This document shows positions 3,429 through 10,095 of a stretch of DNA of 64,000 nucleotides, piece after piece. The DNA lies in contig JHYJ01000006.1 of the NCBI GenBank assembly GCA_000621425.1, positions 186,001 to 250,000 on the forward strand, given 5' to 3'. Position 1 is the first letter of the stretch. Every line of letters starts with the position of its first letter. Source of the stretch: Lachnospiraceae bacterium AB2028. GTDB lineage: Bacteria; Bacillota; Clostridia; Lachnospirales; Lachnospiraceae. The position numbers and the translations under genes were made by a program. The notes under the pieces were generated by a model. It saw only the letters and a list, made by a program, of their open reading frames with translations. It had not been told where the DNA came from and made no database searches.

Positions 3429-6107
3429 ATGTTTTATGGTAAGTGCAAAAAAAAGAACATATTGCGTATGGTACTATCAGCGTTCATTATGCTGTGCTTA
3501 TTGTTCATCACAAATTTTCTATGCATACACACAAGTGTATATGCAGCTTCGGAATTCGATCTTTATCTCTCCGGAACACTGACCCCTGGAGCTACCCTTA
3601 CGGCAACTCCGCCCACAGGCAGTTTAACTGAATCTTGGGCCGGAACATATATCGTTTTTTGCGAACATGAGGCAATGGCACAGAATGCTTACAATTCGGT
3701 AGGAACCAATACGGATTCGATATCTGATGCTATAGATAGTATTAATGCTTGCGAAGGAGAAAAAAGAGTATTAGAAGTTAATTATGTTAGTGGCTCTTCT
3801 GTAACTGTTCCCAGTGGAAGTCATATAAAATCATGGAAAATGTATAGATCTCAAAAAAAAGTGCGGGGGCCGCTTCCGGCAATGTCTAATCTGGCTCCTT
3901 ATATTTTTCTTGTTGTCTATGTTGCCGAATACGAAACTACAATAAATTATTACTCAAATGATGGAGAAAATCAGACTTATACAGATACAGTAACAACCAC
4001 CTTTGCTGACGCTAGTTCGGGTAGTTCATTCACTCTGGCTGCAGATGATACTTTTTCAAGGACCGGATATAGTCTTGTTAAATGGAAAGAACGTGGAGGT
4101 GGTGACTTTGAGTATGAACCCGGTTCCAGTTATGGGTTCGGCAACCCTACAACGTATAGTTTTGATGCAGTCTGGGAACCTTTGTCTTCCGTTACGGTAA
4201 AAGTGCATTATAATCCGAACGGCGGAGATGGTTCAACGGTAACACAGACTGAAAATGTGGACCTTGACCCCGGCGCACCTGAAACGGGTGATTTTCGCTT
4301 ATGGAATACAACAGAAATGACGCGGGATGGCTACAGGCTTGTAGGCTGGCAGGCTTCTGATGGTAATGCTTATTCTTTAGGGGAATCTTACGAGTTTTCG
4401 TCAGATGTTACGGACATATACTTTGATGCAATATGGGAGGAGCTTCCTATAATTAATATCCCGGTAACCTACAGACCAAACGGTGGAAGTGGGACTGTTA
4501 TAAGCGAAAATGAGGAAGTGCAGCTGGATATATATGATGAAGGAAGTTTTACGCTTCGGGCTTCAGCAGATTTTACACGGCCTGGTTATAAGCTTACCGG
4601 TTGGAAGGATCAGGACGGCATGGAATACGACCTGGGGGATACATATGATGTTGTTTTGATGTCGGACCCGCTTACGTTTGATGCCATATGGACAGAGAAG
4701 ATTAAGGGAACCGTTGATATAGATATAAAGAAGCCTGTTTATGTAGGGGCTGAGATAAAATACGATATAGATAAGAATTCAAAAGGCGATGTAACAGTAG
4801 AATATAAGAAAAAGGATGAAAAGGACGAAAAGTATTCCAAGAAAGTGCCTACGGAACCCGGAAAATACACGGTAAGGGCAACGCTTGAAGAGACTGACGA
4901 GTATACTGCGGCGGAAGATACTTCAGAGTTTGATATCGATTATCTGGCTGCACCCGATAATCCCTATTCGTATCGGGAGGTTAAGAACAGCGCAGGGACA
5001 GTTACGGATGTGAAGGTTATTCCTGCAGAAGGATACAGCATATCGTCTTCTGCTGATGCGGATTTTGCGTCATCAATATCCTATACAGCGGTAAAAGCGG
5101 CAGGTGGTTCTGTTTACCTGAAGCGCGAAAAGGATAAGGCTATTACCGCGGCTGTTAAGATTACGGAGTATCATCTGGAAGATACAATTAAACTAACCGT
5201 TCCGTCAAAAATCTACTATGGTACGGAACTGAAAGTTACTGCCTCGTCATTATCGCCTGCGAAAAAGGTAATTGAATACAAAAAGGCAGGTGCACCTGAT
5301 AATGCTTATTCAGCAACGGTGCCCACCACTCCTGGGGATTATATCGTAAGATTCAGTGCACCTGAATCGGGATTATATCTTGCCGTAAATGAAACTAAGA
5401 ATTTCTCGATAGTATATCTGGAGACACCCTCTGATAAGGCGTACCTGGATGGCAAAAAGGGAGATGACGGGTGGTTCAAATCTGATGTTGAGATAAAGGC
5501 TCCGAAGGGGTATCTCATAAGCACCACGCTTGGAACCGGCTATACGGATTCCATAGAGTGGAGCGATAAGATAAAGAAACTTTATTATCAGCGTGATGAC
5601 GGAGCTATGACCGATGCGGTGGATTTTGACCCTTCTGCAAAGATTGATATGAAGGCACCGGTAGCAAAGTTTGACAGCAGTCTCGGAATAAATAACCCGA
5701 GCGGAACTGTAAAGGTTACCCTGGATAACCTTACATTCACTCTTGAAGATGATAATCTGGAAAAGGTGACTGTGAACGGTAAGCCATATGATGTCTCAAA
5801 AGGAAAATGCGTCATAAGTCTTGATTCAGGTTCTGATACTGAGTCCTGGACCGTGGTAGCAACTGATAAGGCAGGAAACAGCTACACATTCACCGTAGAG
5901 CTTTCCCCCCAGTGGATGTCTAACAACGTAATGCCGGCAGGCCGTGTGGTAACCCTTAAGTCGAATATCGAGTATTCTTTTTCCGGCGAAGGCGAGTGGA
6001 TGGTTGAAATCGACGGTAAGGTAGATGATACTGTATATGCCGGCGGTAATAAGTTCTTTGTAAAAGGAAACATGGAGTGTAAGTTCGTAAAGAAAACTGA
6101 AGCTTAG
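3429..6107 (+). CDS. Secreted InlB/MBG-repeat surface protein
   Basis: An intact 892-residue member of the tandem family. It has a signal peptide (1-39, cleavage after SVYA) and an N-terminal region of about 130 residues unlike the other copies. Three Listeria/Bacteroides (InlB B-repeat-like) repeats follow at about 169-255, 257-340 and 343-425, each with the pattern (N/Y)xNGG ... GYxLxGW ... FDAxW. MBG-like Ig modules lie at about 427-500 and 585-660, and a C-terminal domain of about 220 residues is nearly identical to the preceding gene. No LPXTG motif, terminal membrane anchor or catalytic motif is visible, so it is probably released or held non-covalently. Such repeats are usual in adhesins and other extracellular proteins of gut and rumen bacteria; the actual ligand is unknown. 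GGGGGAT precedes ATG 3429. Confidence 0.8.
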   Translation: MFYGKCKKKNILRMVLSAFIMLCLLFITNFLCIHTSVYAASEFDLYLSGTLTPGATLTATPPTGSLTESWAGTYIVFCEHEAMAQNAYNSVGTNTDSISDAIDSINACEGEKRVLEVNYVSGSSVTVPSGSHIKSWKMYRSQKKVRGPLPAMSNLAPYIFLVVYVAEYETTINYYSNDGENQTYTDTVTTTFADASSGSSFTLAADDTFSRTGYSLVKWKERGGGDFEYEPGSSYGFGNPTTYSFDAVWEPLSSVTVKVHYNPNGGDGSTVTQTENVDLDPGAPETGDFRLWNTTEMTRDGYRLVGWQASDGNAYSLGESYEFSSDVTDIYFDAIWEELPIINIPVTYRPNGGSGTVISENEEVQLDIYDEGSFTLRASADFTRPGYKLTGWKDQDGMEYDLGDTYDVVLMSDPLTFDAIWTEKIKGTVDIDIKKPVYVGAEIKYDIDKNSKGDVTVEYKKKDEKDEKYSKKVPTEPGKYTVRATLEETDEYTAAEDTSEFDIDYLAAPDNPYSYREVKNSAGTVTDVKVIPAEGYSISSSADADFASSISYTAVKAAGGSVYLKREKDKAITAAVKITEYHLEDTIKLTVPSKIYYGTELKVTASSLSPAKKVIEYKKAGAPDNAYSATVPTTPGDYIVRFSAPESGLYLAVNETKNFSIVYLETPSDKAYLDGKKGDDGWFKSDVEIKAPKGYLISTTLGTGYTDSIEWSDKIKKLYYQRDDGAMTDAVDFDPSAKIDMKAPVAKFDSSLGINNPSGTVKVTLDNLTFTLEDDNLEKVTVNGKPYDVSKGKCVISLDSGSDTESWTVVATDKAGNSYTFTVELSPQWMSNNVMPAGRVVTLKSNIEYSFSGEGEWMVEIDGKVDDTVYAGGNKFFVKGNMECKFVKKTEA
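5410..6095 (+). repeat. Long direct repeat, copy 2
   Basis: The partner of the repeat at 2590-3275, inside the 3' end of the intact surface-protein gene. Same orientation, offset about 2.8 kb. Recombination between the copies would delete one gene or create chimeras. Confidence 0.8.
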
Positions 6108-6126: not shown

Positions 6127-8058
6127 ATGAAGGAAAAAATAAACAAAAGTGAAATAATCTATGACATACTGTTCATGATCCTTGCGGCAGTGCTTGTCTT
6201 CATACTCACGATCACAAATTCATTTTCCAGACTGGATTACCTGGCAACGGATGCACTGTACCAGACCCCTCGAGGTGTGTCGAGCAAGATTAAGATAATA
6301 GGCATTGATGAGAATACACTTGAAAAATATGGCCCCATAAATACCTGGTCGCGTTCAATCTATGCAGACCTGATCAAAAAGCTTACTGAAGATCCGGAAA
6401 ATGAACCGGATATCATAGGTTTCGATATACAGTTTTCCGGTCATGTGGATGAGGCAGGGGACACGGCTTTTGCCGAGGCTGCCAGGGAATATGGCAATGC
6501 GGTGGTTGTAGGCCAGTTTAAATATGATGACAGGCCTTTGCGTGATCCCAACGGTAATATCTATTACGCCGTAAAAGATATTTATCTTCCTTTTCAGGAA
6601 CTTGCAGATGAGTGTTACATGGGATACTCAAACGTTTCTCAGGATTCTGACGGAACAGTGCGCCGTATAACAACGGAAACAGAGTACAATGGTACCGTTT
6701 ATAGAAGTTTCCCTTGGATGATATATAAGAAATACAGTGAGAATCAGCATGTAGAGCCCCTTGCTTATTCCAAGGATCAGTACGGTAGGTCCATAATAGA
6801 CTATTCCGGTCGTCCTGGTGACTATGAGTATGTTCCGTTGGTAGATGTACTGGAGGGGAAAATAGATCCCAGGGCATTCTCCAACTGCATTGTACTGGTA
6901 GGTGCATATGCTCCGGGCATGATGGATAATTTTAATGTACCCACCGGCGGAACAAAGCAGATGTACGGAGTGGAGATACACGCGAACATCTTGCAGGCTT
7001 TCATGCAGAACCGTTTCTCAGTAAACGGAAATCCCTACCTCTATGCAATCATATTTGCGATAGTAGCAGCCCTGCTGGTACTGGTATTTAGAAGGCTTCA
7101 TGTAGTCATTGCATCAATTGCTGCTGTACTTATGATAGTAGCGGAAGTGATGTTCGGTGTCATGATGCACAATAATAAGGGCATAGTCATCAGCATCATT
7201 TATTTTCCGATAGTTGTCATTGTATTTTATGTGTACAGTCTCGCTAAACGGTATATACAGGAATACAGGAACAAAGCCAGGATACTTCAGGCTTTTAGCA
7301 AATATGTGGCACCTCAGATCATTGAGGAAATTGCACGGACAGGAACATATAAGGTAAGTCTTGGTGGCGAGAGCCGCGACATATCGGCATTATTCGTTGA
7401 TATACGAGGCTTCACTACCATGTCTGAGGCTTTAAGCCCCGAAGATGTAGTGGCCATCCTGAACCAGTACCTTGCCCTTACTACCAAGGCTGTTTTTGAC
7501 AATCTTGGCACCCTGGATAAGTTCGTGGGTGACTGTACCATGGCAGTATTTAATTCGCCCTTCGATCTGGATGACTACGAGTTCAAGAGTGTATGTGCGG
7601 CTATGGATATCGCAATGGGAAGCGAACCCTTGAATCAGAAGATCGAGGAACAGTTCGGCCGGAAGATAGGTTTCGGTGTGGGTGTAAACTGCGGACCTGC
7701 CGTTACAGGTAACATCGGATGCGATTTCCGTATGGACTATACGGCTATAGGTGATACCGTAAATACTGCGGCCAGACTTGAAGCGAATGCCGGAGCCGGT
7801 AAGGTATATATAAGTGATGTGCTTTATGCCCGTGTAAAGGAAAGAGTGGATGTAGAGGAAGTCGGAGTCATACCTCTCAAGGGTAAGAAAAACGGTGTGG
7901 TTGTTTATTCTGTGACGGCAGTGCACAAGGATATACCTGCTCCTGATCCGGAGGAAATGGCAAGGCGCAGGGCTCTTTACTGTGTGGCAGGAAACATGCC
8001 GGAGAATGAGAATGCTGAGAATGAGGCTGAAGGTGAAAATAAGTCAGTTGAAGGCTGA
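6127..8058 (+). CDS. CHASE2-domain class III adenylate cyclase
   Basis: A 643-residue membrane protein. It has an N-terminal membrane helix (12-30), an extracytoplasmic CHASE2 sensor (about 35-290), three membrane helices (about 303-321, 327-347, 353-373) and a cytoplasmic class III cyclase domain (about 410-590). Catalytic residues are in place: metal-binding D425 (LFVDIRGFT) and D469 (KFVGD), base-contacting K465 and T539, and N546/R550 in GDTVNTAARLE for transition-state binding. It should make cAMP from ATP as a homodimer in response to an external signal. Guanylate cyclase activity cannot be excluded from sequence, although the K/T pair fits ATP. The tail (600-643) is acidic and disordered. 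The gene starts 19 bases after the surface-protein gene and may be cotranscribed with it. No CRP-like regulator is in the window. Confidence 0.9.
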   Translation: MKEKINKSEIIYDILFMILAAVLVFILTITNSFSRLDYLATDALYQTPRGVSSKIKIIGIDENTLEKYGPINTWSRSIYADLIKKLTEDPENEPDIIGFDIQFSGHVDEAGDTAFAEAAREYGNAVVVGQFKYDDRPLRDPNGNIYYAVKDIYLPFQELADECYMGYSNVSQDSDGTVRRITTETEYNGTVYRSFPWMIYKKYSENQHVEPLAYSKDQYGRSIIDYSGRPGDYEYVPLVDVLEGKIDPRAFSNCIVLVGAYAPGMMDNFNVPTGGTKQMYGVEIHANILQAFMQNRFSVNGNPYLYAIIFAIVAALLVLVFRRLHVVIASIAAVLMIVAEVMFGVMMHNNKGIVISIIYFPIVVIVFYVYSLAKRYIQEYRNKARILQAFSKYVAPQIIEEIARTGTYKVSLGGESRDISALFVDIRGFTTMSEALSPEDVVAILNQYLALTTKAVFDNLGTLDKFVGDCTMAVFNSPFDLDDYEFKSVCAAMDIAMGSEPLNQKIEEQFGRKIGFGVGVNCGPAVTGNIGCDFRMDYTAIGDTVNTAARLEANAGAGKVYISDVLYARVKERVDVEEVGVIPLKGKKNGVVVYSVTAVHKDIPAPDPEEMARRRALYCVAGNMPENENAENEAEGENKSVEG

Positions 8059-8140: not shown

Positions 8141-8524
8141 ATGAAAATGACAAAGAAGAAAGCGTCCGTTTTCGGAATGGCAGCCGTGACGCTTTTCAGT
8201 GTCGGGGGTTTTAGTGCCTGCGGACAGGGTGCAGATGTGCCTGCAGTTTACGGTCCGCCTACTGATTTTGGCATAGAAGACAATCAGCAGGAAGATGTCT
8301 ATGGTCCCCCTGTGGATTTTGATATTGATATAGATGATAATGAACCAGCCGCTGTTTATGGTCCGCCTGCTGACTTTGAGATGGAGGAGAGTGAGGACGA
8401 TACCGTGTCGGATGATTTCGCTACAGTGAGCGATAATGAGGAACCTCCGCTGTACGGTCCGCCTGAAGAAGTGGATGTCGATAATAATGAAAATGCCGAT
8501 GTCTATGGACCTCCTGTGGAATAA
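8141..8524 (+). CDS. YGPP-repeat lipoprotein, candidate radical SAM substrate
   Basis: A 127-residue protein starting at ATG 8141 behind GGAGGGG; an upstream in-frame start at 8102 has no ribosome site. Residues 1-27 form a lipoprotein signal with lipobox FSAC (Cys27). The rest is acidic (D/E/N rich) and has five copies of the motif YGPP, with Tyr at residues 37, 54, 73, 105 and 122. Three are followed by x-D-F and the last ends the protein as YGPPVE. The stop codon overlaps the start of the radical SAM/SPASM gene (TAATG), so the two are translationally coupled. Repeated short motifs next to a SPASM enzyme are typical of ribosomally made peptides modified at each repeat; here Tyr or the neighbouring residues would be the targets (inference). 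The lipoprotein signal suggests the modified product is displayed on the outer face of the membrane. I do not recognise a named family. Confidence 0.8.
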   Translation: MKMTKKKASVFGMAAVTLFSVGGFSACGQGADVPAVYGPPTDFGIEDNQQEDVYGPPVDFDIDIDDNEPAAVYGPPADFEMEESEDDTVSDDFATVSDNEEPPLYGPPEEVDVDNNENADVYGPPVE

Positions 8525-9600
8525 TGGCCATGACGAGAGAAGAGATAAAAGTAGCCAACTTAGACCTGCTTGCGGAGCATCAGAGGAAACTTTGCCGTGA
8601 GCCTGAACTGAGGCAGCTTTTCCTGGAGCTGACATTGAAGTGCAATGAGCACTGTTTCCACTGTGGCAGCAGCTGTGCCGGCAATCTGCCGGACGGTCTT
8701 CCTTTGGAAAAATATAAAGAAATCCTGGATGAAGTAAAGGCAAACTTCGGTACTAAACTGCTGATCGCCGTAACCGGCGGTGAGCCTTTGCTTTACCCTG
8801 ACTTTTTTGAGCTTGTGGAGTATATCCATAAGCTAGGTTTTCCTTGGGGAATGACCAGCAACGGCACCCTGATTACGAAGGAAGTGGCGCACCGCCTGAA
8901 AGAGACTGGTATGCGCAGTATTTCCTTAAGCATTGACGGCATACCGGAAACCCATGACAGATACAGGGGCTTAAAGGATGCATATAAGCTTGGCATGCAG
9001 GGCATACAGAACCTGGTGGATGAGGACTGCTTTACCACCATGGTTACCACTGTAGTTAATCATGAGAACATAAAAGAACTGGATCAGCTGTTTGAGATAT
9101 TCGACAATATTGATATCAACGAATGGCGTCTTACCGGCATAGAGCCCATAGGCCGTGCGGAGCTTGTTCCCAATATGCTGCTGACACCTGATGACAATAG
9201 GTATCTGATGGAGTTCATTAAGGCAAAGCGTGAGCAGAGAATCCCGGTGACATATTCATGCTGCCACTTCCTGGGAACAAAGTATGAGGCGGAAGTCCGT
9301 GACTGGTATTTCCTTTGCAATGCCGGAATATATGTGGCTGGTATACTGGTTAATGGTGATGTGACTGCATGCCTGGATATTCCCCATAATGTGAAATCCA
9401 TACAGGGCAATATCTACAAGGATAGTTTTACGAAGATATGGAAGGAACGCTTTCAGATATTCCGCAATCCATTATCCGATCGCAATGAAAAATGTGCATC
9501 CTGTCCGGAGGCAAAGTGGTGCAGGGGCGGAGCGTACCACAGCTGGGACTACGAGAACGAAAAGCCGAAGGTATGTTTCAAGGGTGTGCTGTTTGAGTGA
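8524..9600 (+). CDS. Radical SAM/SPASM peptide maturase
   Basis: A 358-residue radical SAM enzyme. The CX3CX2C cluster motif is at C40/C44/C47 (CNEHCFHC), followed by the GGEP SAM-binding motif. The C-terminal SPASM domain has Cys at 265, 283 (GX4C), 324, 327, 333 and 351. Relative to the usual seven-cysteine pattern, the position of the last Cys of CX5CX3C is Ala337, so one auxiliary cluster may have an unusual ligand. SPASM enzymes modify peptides or proteins by radical chemistry, making crosslinks, thioethers, cyclophanes or epimers. The ATG at 8524 overlaps the stop of the YGPP lipoprotein, making that protein the likely substrate. No peptidase, exporter or separate RRE-domain gene is adjacent; export through the Sec/lipoprotein route would make a dedicated exporter unnecessary (inference). 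The exact reaction cannot be read from sequence. Confidence 0.9.
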   Translation: MAMTREEIKVANLDLLAEHQRKLCREPELRQLFLELTLKCNEHCFHCGSSCAGNLPDGLPLEKYKEILDEVKANFGTKLLIAVTGGEPLLYPDFFELVEYIHKLGFPWGMTSNGTLITKEVAHRLKETGMRSISLSIDGIPETHDRYRGLKDAYKLGMQGIQNLVDEDCFTTMVTTVVNHENIKELDQLFEIFDNIDINEWRLTGIEPIGRAELVPNMLLTPDDNRYLMEFIKAKREQRIPVTYSCCHFLGTKYEAEVRDWYFLCNAGIYVAGILVNGDVTACLDIPHNVKSIQGNIYKDSFTKIWKERFQIFRNPLSDRNEKCASCPEAKWCRGGAYHSWDYENEKPKVCFKGVLFE

Positions 9601-9741: not shown

Positions 9742-10095
9742 ATGATAAAAGTATACTGTTATCAAAAATGTACTACATGCAAGAAAGCACTGAAGTGGCT
9801 TGATGACAACGGAATCGAGTACAAGATTATAGACATAAAGGAAGACCATCCGGACGAGAAGACCCTGCGCAAATTCCATAAGCAGAGCGGTCTTCCGCTT
9901 CGCAAGTTCTTCAACACCAGCGGAATGCTTTACCGTGAGCTGGAGCTTTCAAAGAAACTGCCGGACATGAGCGAGGACGAAATGTTCAAGCTCCTTGCAT
10001 CAGACGGTATGTTGGTAAAAAGACCTCTGCTTGTAGCTGATAAGAATGTGCTTACGGGATTTAAGGAAGAGGAGTGGAAAAAGGTGCTGGGCTGA
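9742..10095 (+). CDS. ArsC/Spx-family thioredoxin-fold protein
   Basis: A 117-residue protein of the ArsC/Spx/MgsR family. It starts at ATG 9742, preceded by AGGAAGG; an in-frame start at 9706 lacks a site. The N-terminal strand is followed by CTTC (Cys10 and Cys13) and KKALKWLDDNGIEY, then KxxxxLPLRKFFNTSG and a C-terminal RPLL segment, the usual family blocks. The CXXC resembles Spx, which contacts RNA polymerase under thiol stress, and also small uncharacterised YusI-like proteins. Arsenate reductase itself needs an Arg set around a single Cys, which I cannot confirm. I favour an Spx/MgsR-like or generic redox role. No arsenic-resistance genes are adjacent. Confidence 0.8.
   Translation: MIKVYCYQKCTTCKKALKWLDDNGIEYKIIDIKEDHPDEKTLRKFHKQSGLPLRKFFNTSGMLYRELELSKKLPDMSEDEMFKLLASDGMLVKRPLLVADKNVLTGFKEEEWKKVLG

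What the first reader, a model, noticed from the sequence alone, without database searches (positions are those of the whole stretch)
8141..9600. YGPP-repeat lipoprotein coupled to a radical SAM/SPASM enzyme: candidate new modified-peptide system
The sequence shows five YGPP motifs in an acidic 127-residue lipoprotein whose stop overlaps (TAATG) the start of a SPASM-type radical SAM gene. Repeated motif, small size, coupling and SPASM domain are the hallmarks of a ribosomal peptide and its maturase. Unusual points are the lipoprotein signal (product tethered to the membrane) and a Pro-Pro next to the likely target Tyr. No known system that I can name uses this core.
Basis: partly seen in the sequence, partly recalled or inferred. 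Interest (0 to 1): 0.88.

Follow-up and report, generated by a model that had tools for sequence, protein, structure and literature searches.

The report
Lipoprotein with presumed Tyr-Gly editing enzyme
Side by side lie a gene for a small surface protein with five Tyr-Gly-Pro-Pro motifs and a gene for an enzyme that most likely edits that motif, perhaps by cutting out part of each tyrosine; the pair is one branch of a widespread but unexplained bacterial family, and what the edit is can now be tested directly.

Summary
Confirmed: a 127-residue lipoprotein with five YGPP motifs overlaps (TAATG) a radical SAM/SPASM gene. The pair is conserved but has relatives. The enzyme falls in the clade of NCBI family TIGR04133 ("rSAM_w_lipo"), though below its cut-off. 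Bacteroidota and Treponema relatives sit beside TIGR04134 lipoproteins; the three read share Tyr-Gly-x-Pro near the lipid cysteine. In 80 related loci (seven phyla by title), a YGxP lipoprotein lies within 1.5 kb in 57 (controls 2 and 2). In the genus, VYGPP clusters occur in 17 of 21 genomes with the enzyme and 0 of 14 without. Of 119 Bacteroidales genomes, all 14 with TIGR04134 are among the 30 with TIGR04133. The nearest sampled clade holds a TIGR04103 enzyme, the family I recall as that of PlpX, which excises tyramine from Xaa-Tyr-Gly; the precursor beside it ends ALYGLPPELF, close to VYGPPEDF/EWF in relatives of this lipoprotein. Best reading: each YG is edited in the cytosol before Sec export, leaving an anchored protein with several modified sites, most likely alpha-keto-beta-amino acids (about -135 Da each). 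The chemistry is inferred; a -2 Da crosslink is the main rival.

The parts
8141..8524 (+). acidic lipoprotein, 127 aa, five YGPP motifs: the presumed substrate
8141..8218 (+). lipoprotein signal peptide (aa 1-26) with G-M-A-A-V-T-L-F
   Evidence: lipobox read by eye; the DNA pattern for Gx-AA-x-T-x-F hits the own genome once, here
8219..8221 (+). presumed lipidated Cys27
8249..8260 (+). YGPP 1 (VYGPP)
8300..8311 (+). YGPP 2 (VYGPP)
8357..8368 (+). YGPP 3 (VYGPP)
8453..8464 (+). YGPP 4 (LYGPP)
8504..8515 (+). YGPP 5 (VYGPP)
8524..9600 (+). radical SAM/SPASM enzyme, 358 aa (start possibly 8530); TIGR04133 clade
   Evidence: AlphaFold2 mean pLDDT 92.7
8641..8676 (+). CNEHCFHCGSSC: CxxxCxxC plus the clade's HCGSxC (C51)
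   Evidence: C51 in 92 of 92 clade rows
9316..9522 (+). SPASM region (Pfam match aa 265-328, drawn on to C333); the last Cys of CX2CX5CX3C is absent (Ala337)

Best explanation
The pair is a two-gene protein-editing unit. The SPASM radical SAM enzyme recognises xaa-Tyr-Gly-(x)-Pro in the lipoprotein in the cytosol, acts at each repeat, and the protein then leaves by the ordinary Sec/Lgt/Lsp lipoprotein route and stays anchored in the membrane; I saw no peptidase or exporter gene beside the pair. SHOWN by sequence: the motif, the association of enzyme and motif across phyla, and the tree position beside the clade that holds a PlpX-type (TIGR04103) enzyme. INFERRED: that the enzyme modifies the motif at all; [quoted passage not shown] that the product is a surface array of up to five electrophilic ketoamides, for example an anchored protease decoy or inhibitor. 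My odds: modification of YG by this enzyme about 0.9; tyramine excision as its chemistry about 0.5; protease-directed role about 0.25.
For: Association: YGxP lipoprotein within 1.5 kb in 57 of 80 related loci, against 2 of 80 on reversed and 2 of 80 on complemented sequence. Genus: at least two VYGPP hits within 1 kb in 17 of 21 genomes with the enzyme and 0 of 14 without (my count; Fisher 1.6e-6, blind to shared descent); in six of the 17 (G001, G020, G026, G030, G031, G032) the two genes lie on different contigs of the draft and the enzyme has other neighbours. Bacteroidales: TIGR04134 in 14 of 119 genomes, all among the 30 with TIGR04133. Motif: of 149 YG sites in neighbouring lipoprotein-like ORFs, chosen without looking past the YG, the third residue after Tyr is Pro in 113, against 23 of 300 YG in ORFs over 250 aa of the same loci. 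Chemistry: the clade and a clade with TIGR04103 and GDL-type enzymes form one side of a branch against 8 outgroup rows, 100/98; HCGS is in 92 of 92 and 6 of 6 rows and in 0 of 6 other rows; the Nif11 precursor beside the Nostoc TIGR04103 gene ends ALYGLPPELF; PlpXY acts naturally on MYG and LYG sites, and the two tags accepted in FtsZ (of 16 listed) carry GYGLPI, that is YGxP (PMC10533398, passages).
Against: No chemistry was observed. PlpX itself was not in my tree; that TIGR04103 is its family rests on recall and on the review's description (Nif11 precursors, IPR026482). PlpX works with a partner, PlpY, and has Nif11- or nitrile-hydratase-like leaders; neither was seen between 8058 and 10095. 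In the FtsZ tests of PMC10533398, 14 of 16 tags were not accepted, the two with LYGLPI among them, so YGxP alone does not make a PlpX site. By NCBIfam E-value AhbD, NirJ2, MftC and NirJ1 (148, 136, 135, 118 bits) stand above TIGR04103 (112), and the tree has only 8 outgroup rows. All 92 clade rows lack the last Cys of the SPASM CX3C that all 6 PlpX-side rows keep; instead they have Cys246 (92 of 92; 1 of 6 on the PlpX side) and His339 (91 of 92; 0 of 6), so the reaction may differ. In 15 of 149 sites the residue before Tyr is Cys, mostly the lipid Cys itself: splicing there would change the residue that Lgt and Lsp act on. In the GDL branch only 4 of 8 peptides read carry YG. For 7 of 80 loci I found no YG protein near, nor a TIGR04134 gene in the genome. 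Of the 30 Bacteroidales genomes with the enzyme, 16 have no TIGR04134 match.
Confidence: 0.5

Rival explanations
1. The enzyme links Tyr to a nearby residue (a cyclophane or other crosslink, -2 Da per repeat).
For: SPASM enzymes that join side chains are common (recalled); the fold's best PDB matches are SkfB and SuiB, the latter making a carbon-carbon link (recalled). A Tyr-x-x spacing would fit a three-residue cyclophane.
Against: The residue at +2 varies widely (P, T, V, S, C, M, Q, A) and is Gly in the Myxococcales repeat KYGGPP, which has no side-chain carbon to join. The nearest sampled enzymes are the PlpX-side clade. The constant Gly after Tyr is part of the PlpX motif Xaa-Tyr-Gly.
Confidence: 0.25
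2. The enzyme makes another change at the motif (epimer, desaturation, oxidation at Gly or Pro) that secures the lipoprotein's exit or folding near the membrane.
For: The first YG lies directly after the lipid Cys in 15 of 63 loci; the domains that follow vary, so the motif could act near the anchor. The SPASM cysteines differ from the PlpX side.
Against: In Firmicutes the repeats run along the whole protein, not only near the anchor.
Confidence: 0.15
3. The two genes are only neighbours; the enzyme acts on something else and YGPP is a structural repeat.
For: In six genus genomes the two genes are on different contigs; 7 of 80 loci show no YG protein.
Against: Co-occurrence holds when they are apart, in the genus and in Bacteroidales, and the motif follows the enzyme across phyla on different protein backbones.
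Confidence: 0.08

Closest known systems
NCBIfam TIGR04133 (rSAM_w_lipo) with TIGR04134 (lipo_with_rSAM)
   Same: Same enzyme clade; gene next to a lipoprotein; Tyr-Gly-x-Pro near the lipid Cys in the three members read (CEYGSP, CEYGTP, CYGMP).
   Different: Window enzyme scores 282.7 against a curated cut-off of 425; the lipoprotein has no TIGR04134 match at E up to 1 and five motifs instead of one, with no further domain found.
PlpX/PlpXY splicease, spliceotides (TIGR04103 by recall; Nif11-class maturase 3)
   Same: SPASM radical SAM with HCGS; target Tyr-Gly preceded by a variable residue; nearest sampled clade; LYGLPPELF at the Nostoc precursor's end.
   Different: No PlpY-like partner or Nif11 leader seen; substrates are exported, mostly membrane-anchored proteins; SPASM cysteines differ.
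GDL motif peptide/DUF1843 radical SAM system (TIGR03913)
   Same: In the PlpX-side clade; 4 of 8 peptides read carry YG.
   Different: Short peptides without an evident signal; YG replaced by YA or YM in the other 4.
Mycofactocin maturase MftC
   Same: SPASM radical SAM acting on Tyr (PMC8326336 passage).
   Different: On the other side of the branch in the tree; acts on Tyr and an adjacent Val.

Membership tests
TIGR04133 | score over the curated cut-off (425 bits) | tested here: not met
   282.7 bits; 0 of 35 genus genomes over it
TIGR04133 | one clade with proteins annotated or scored as TIGR04133 | tested here: met
   20 rows, 100/98; 48 rows
TIGR04133 | gene beside a lipoprotein gene | tested here: met
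   (lipobox by eye)
TIGR04134 | profile match of the lipoprotein | tested here: not met
   no family at E up to 1
PlpXY splicease | substrate with Xaa-Tyr-Gly | tested here: met
   five sites
PlpXY splicease | enzyme in the TIGR04103 clade | tested here: not met
   neighbour clade, not inside it; 112 bits against a cut-off of 725
PlpXY splicease | PlpY-type partner gene | tested here: not met
   no such ORF seen between 8058 and 10095; a copy elsewhere was not sought
PlpXY splicease | Nif11- or nitrile-hydratase-like leader | tested here: not met
   lipoprotein signal instead; no NCBIfam match, only DUF4794 at E 0.029, below its cut-off, in Pfam
PlpXY splicease | tyramine excision | not testable with these tools
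   needs mass spectrometry
SPASM domain proteins | CX2CX5CX3C (motif recalled) | tested here: not met
   last Cys absent in 92 of 92 clade rows; Pfam SPASM still matches over its cut-off, 2.6e-9
RiPP in the narrow sense | leader cleaved, small product exported | tested here: inconclusive
   no peptidase or exporter gene seen beside it; Sec lipoprotein route presumed

The most novel reading that the evidence does not exclude
A protein-splicing reaction is a routine step in making surface proteins: across several phyla, TIGR04133-clade enzymes excise tyramine from YG motifs in lipoproteins, M15-peptidase proteins and dockerin proteins, so that gut and rumen bacteria display genetically encoded electrophilic keto-amide residues, singly beside the lipid anchor or in arrays as here, able to trap proteases or bond covalently to amines.
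Probability: 0.35. Interest if true: 0.88.

Novelty: new variant of a known kind. Interest (0 to 1): 0.68.

Why it matters
TIGR04133/TIGR04134 is a named pair for which I found no function. This work gives it a target motif that crosses phyla (Tyr-Gly-x-Pro), shows that the likely substrates are whole surface proteins rather than small peptides, and ties it to the PlpX side of the family, which yields a sharp test: about -135 Da per repeat or not. If true, backbone-edited beta-residues would be a feature of surface proteins in a sizeable part of Bacteroidales (30 of 119 genomes sampled hold the enzyme) and in several Firmicutes.

Tried and rejected
Signal peptide as the recognition leader: in the genus, 15 of 25 hits of a GxAAxTxF pattern lie at YGPP lipoproteins (the other 10, four of them in genomes without the enzyme, were not inspected), but other Firmicutes and Bacteroidota have quite different signals, so it cannot be the general recognition element. 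Lipidation as a defining feature: rejected, because two Clostridia loci (L117, L120) and four Bacteroidales loci have apparently secreted YG proteins without a lipobox. Pro-Pro as the core: rejected. The lipoprotein as a TIGR04134 member: rejected by profile. A link with the neighbours (cyclase 6127-8058, Spx-like 9742-10095): upstream neighbours differ among genus genomes. Structure: AlphaFold2 and Foldseek only confirmed a fold like SPASM maturases; coordinates were not in the Python box, so the place of Cys51, Cys246 and His339 is unknown. A first pass for neighbouring lipoproteins (48 of 80, looser rules, some hits clearly spurious) was replaced by the strict scan with controls. A phylum sample of 398 genomes gave only 2 TIGR04133 matches at E up to 1e-60, the own genome and G275, so in Bacillota the enzyme is patchy.

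Literature: ten searches of the held open-licence library. YGPP with radical SAM, TIGR04133 with radical SAM (8), TIGR04134 (9) and 'radical SAM-associated putative lipoprotein' (14) gave no paper; two searches gave listings that I did not read further; concern spliceases. Seen: passages of PMC10533398, PMC11002830, PMC11117315, PMC8326336 and PMC10373908, and one section of the last (48). Scott et al. [quoted passage not shown] its reference seen); it may already include this clade. Haft and Basu 2011 (recalled) is not held.

Full report
WHAT IS THERE. At 8141-8524 lies a 127-residue lipoprotein gene and, overlapping it by one base (TAATG), a 358-residue radical SAM/SPASM gene at 8524-9600. 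An ATG at 8530 may be the enzyme's real start: Met at position 3 is in 9 of the first 10 rows of A1, Met at position 1 in 4. The mature lipoprotein has 101 residues, 31 acidic, none basic, and five tyrosines, all within YGPP; 100,000 shuffles never gave more than one YGPP. Codons vary among the five motifs, so the amino acids are what is kept.

THE ENZYME. Its best NCBIfam match is TIGR04133, rSAM_w_lipo, 282.7 bits against a cut-off of 425; then AhbD 148, NirJ2 136, MftC 135, NirJ1 118, and TIGR04103 112. AlphaFold2 gives a mean pLDDT of 92.7; nearest solved folds are SkfB, SuiB, BlsE, anSME and 5why/5wgg (CteB by recall).

ENZYME AND MOTIF TRAVEL TOGETHER. Of 60 relatives searched, 21 have the enzyme at E up to 1e-40, all in the genus (35 genomes; 0 of 25 others). 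A phylum sample gave 2 of 398 with TIGR04133 at E up to 1e-60. A scan for GTNTAYGGNCCNCCN over the 35 shows two or more hits within 1 kb in 17 of the 21 and in 0 of the 14 without the enzyme (Fisher 1.6e-6, which takes no account of shared descent). The four others are G018 and G033, whose neighbouring lipoprotein has YGVD, YGIP and YGVE; G014, whose neighbour has YYGCP; and G034, whose contig starts 113 bases before the match. G007, without the enzyme, has two lone hits, both in translations that do not look like lipoproteins. In six genomes the YGPP lipoprotein is on another contig than the enzyme. In the two of these six that I read in full, it lies between a DUF308-like gene and pyruvate:ferredoxin oxidoreductase genes (names from reading the translations).

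ACROSS PHYLA. In the 80 loci a strict scan (lipobox, then YGxP within about 80 residues, either strand, within 1.5 kb); the reversed and the complemented sequences give 2 each. By eye, without a control, 15 of the other 23 also have a YG protein near: L113, L116 and L189 (four YGPP each, the first after EAC or EGC, missed for the Glu), L117 and L120 (apparently secreted YGPP proteins without lipobox), L143, L151, L156 and L161 (apparently secreted proteins downstream; YGxP in the first three, YGVK and YGPR in L161), and L132, L146, L159, L160, L162 and L186 (YGPA, YGPR and YGPV in L132, L146 and L160). Of the last eight, L175's genome has a TIGR04134 gene; for L126, L127, L128, L149, L164, L168 and L190 I found no YG protein near and no TIGR04134 gene in the genome, which does not exclude other YG proteins elsewhere. 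L126-L128 form a clade of their own.

BACTEROIDOTA AND TREPONEMA. The plasmid hits in Parabacteroides, Phocaeicola and Treponema lie beside TIGR04134 lipoproteins, over the cut-off in 3 of 3 records, that read CGENGEIPCEYGSPHA, CDSDGPGNELCEYGTPSA and CYGMPENY. The fourth hit, Agathobacter, has no lipoprotein annotated beside it. Among 119 Bacteroidales genomes, TIGR04133 is in 30 (E up to 1e-60; 27 over the cut-off) and TIGR04134 in 14 (E up to 1e-8), all 14 within the 30. The converse fails: 16 of the 30 have no TIGR04134, which may reflect the other substrate shapes seen.

THE MOTIF. Of 101 lipoprotein-like ORFs on the enzyme's strand within 1.6 kb, 87 have YG, in 63 of 80 loci. Over their 149 YG sites: residue before Tyr V 53, M 22, E 21, C 15, K 8, L 7; after Gly P 57, T 26, V 15, S 11; then P 113. 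In ORFs over 250 aa of the same loci, the enzymes included, Pro stands there in 23 of 300. Backbones differ: acidic repeats only; D-Ala-D-Ala carboxypeptidase (PF13539, 6e-21 and 9e-22; L017, L015); a lipocalin-like match below its cut-off (L074); dockerin type I (L198, 6.8e-9); CarboxypepD_reg matches below the cut-off (L111, L109).

KINSHIP WITH PlpX. In a careful tree of 33 rows, the TIGR04133 clade (20 rows, 100/98) and a clade of a Nostoc TIGR04103 enzyme, two GDL/DUF1843-type enzymes, a Tropicibacter enzyme and an Agathobacter enzyme lie together on one side of a branch against 8 rows (six found with the AhbD model, MftC, one Paenibacillus enzyme), 100/98. In a quick tree of 60 rows with 6 outgroup rows (two of them shared with the careful tree) the same join has 85. 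HCGS follows the cluster motif in 92 of 92 and 6 of 6 rows and in none of 6 others. PlpX itself was not at hand: that TIGR04103 is its family rests on recall and on the review's description of PlpX (Nif11 precursors, IPR026482; PMC11002830, passage). The Nostoc precursor ends ALYGLPPELF; here the motifs are VYGPPTDF, VYGPPVDF, VYGPPADF, LYGPPEEV and VYGPPVE, with VYGPPEWF and VYGPPEDF in relatives. [quoted passage not shown] in FtsZ 2 of 16 listed tags were accepted, both with GYGLPI, while two with LYGLPI were not (PMC10533398, passages).

WHAT ARGUES AGAINST. No PlpY or Nif11 leader seen. The clade lacks the last Cys of the SPASM CX3C in all 92 rows and has Cys51 and Cys246 (92 of 92 each) and His339 (91 of 92): its auxiliary-cluster ligation, and so perhaps its reaction, may differ from PlpX. 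NCBIfam E-values rank four other families above TIGR04103. CYG sites would put the change on the lipid cysteine. In the GDL branch 4 of 8 peptides have YA or YM instead of YG. I hold modification at YG as very likely (0.9), tyramine excision as the best single guess (0.5), a crosslink at 0.25.

NOVELTY. The pair is a divergent branch of a catalogued but, as far as I found, unexplained family pair: a new variant of a known kind. The searches named under Tried and rejected found no paper on it in the held library, but that library lacks most subscription journals, and the one paper most likely to cover it, Scott et al. 2022, could not be read.

Noticed in passing
L061:8036-9610 and L060 (G014, G034): A divergent TIGR04133-like enzyme of 524 aa with an extra C-terminal part holding HSHPVQSELQYSIGD, which looks like a JAMM metallopeptidase motif (recalled; Pfam gave no match there); in L061 it lies beside a 62-aa lipoprotein with YYGCP.
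   Followed up: partly
L143, L151, L156, L161, downstream of the enzyme: Bacteroidales proteins, apparently secreted (three in a row in L143), with similar N-terminal regions, and one or more YGxP in L143, L151 and L156: perhaps a second substrate family (first 130 aa seen).
   Followed up: partly
L198:999-1673 and neighbours (L117 locus): Apparently secreted proteins in a row with YGPP; the one tested has a Pfam dockerin type I domain, which hints at display on a cellulosome.
   Followed up: partly
L015-L018: YG-repeat lipoproteins fused to a D-Ala-D-Ala carboxypeptidase domain (Pfam in L015 and L017) beside the enzyme; L016 and L017 show a similar gene just upstream.
   Followed up: partly
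L068-L073: When apart from the enzyme, the YGPP lipoprotein gene lies between a DUF308-like gene and pyruvate:ferredoxin oxidoreductase genes (2 of 6 loci read).
   Followed up: partly
L193, L215, L217: DUF1843/GDL peptides beside PlpX-side radical SAM enzymes; 4 of 8 carry YG.
   Followed up: no
L216: Tropicibacter PlpX-side enzyme in a row with a trypsin-like peptidase and an M23 peptidase gene.
   Followed up: no
window 6127-8058: CHASE2 adenylate/guanylate cyclase gene directly upstream; also upstream in L002-L004, other genes in more distant genus members.
   Followed up: no
window 3429-6107: Large apparently secreted protein with a List_Bact_rpt match.
   Followed up: no
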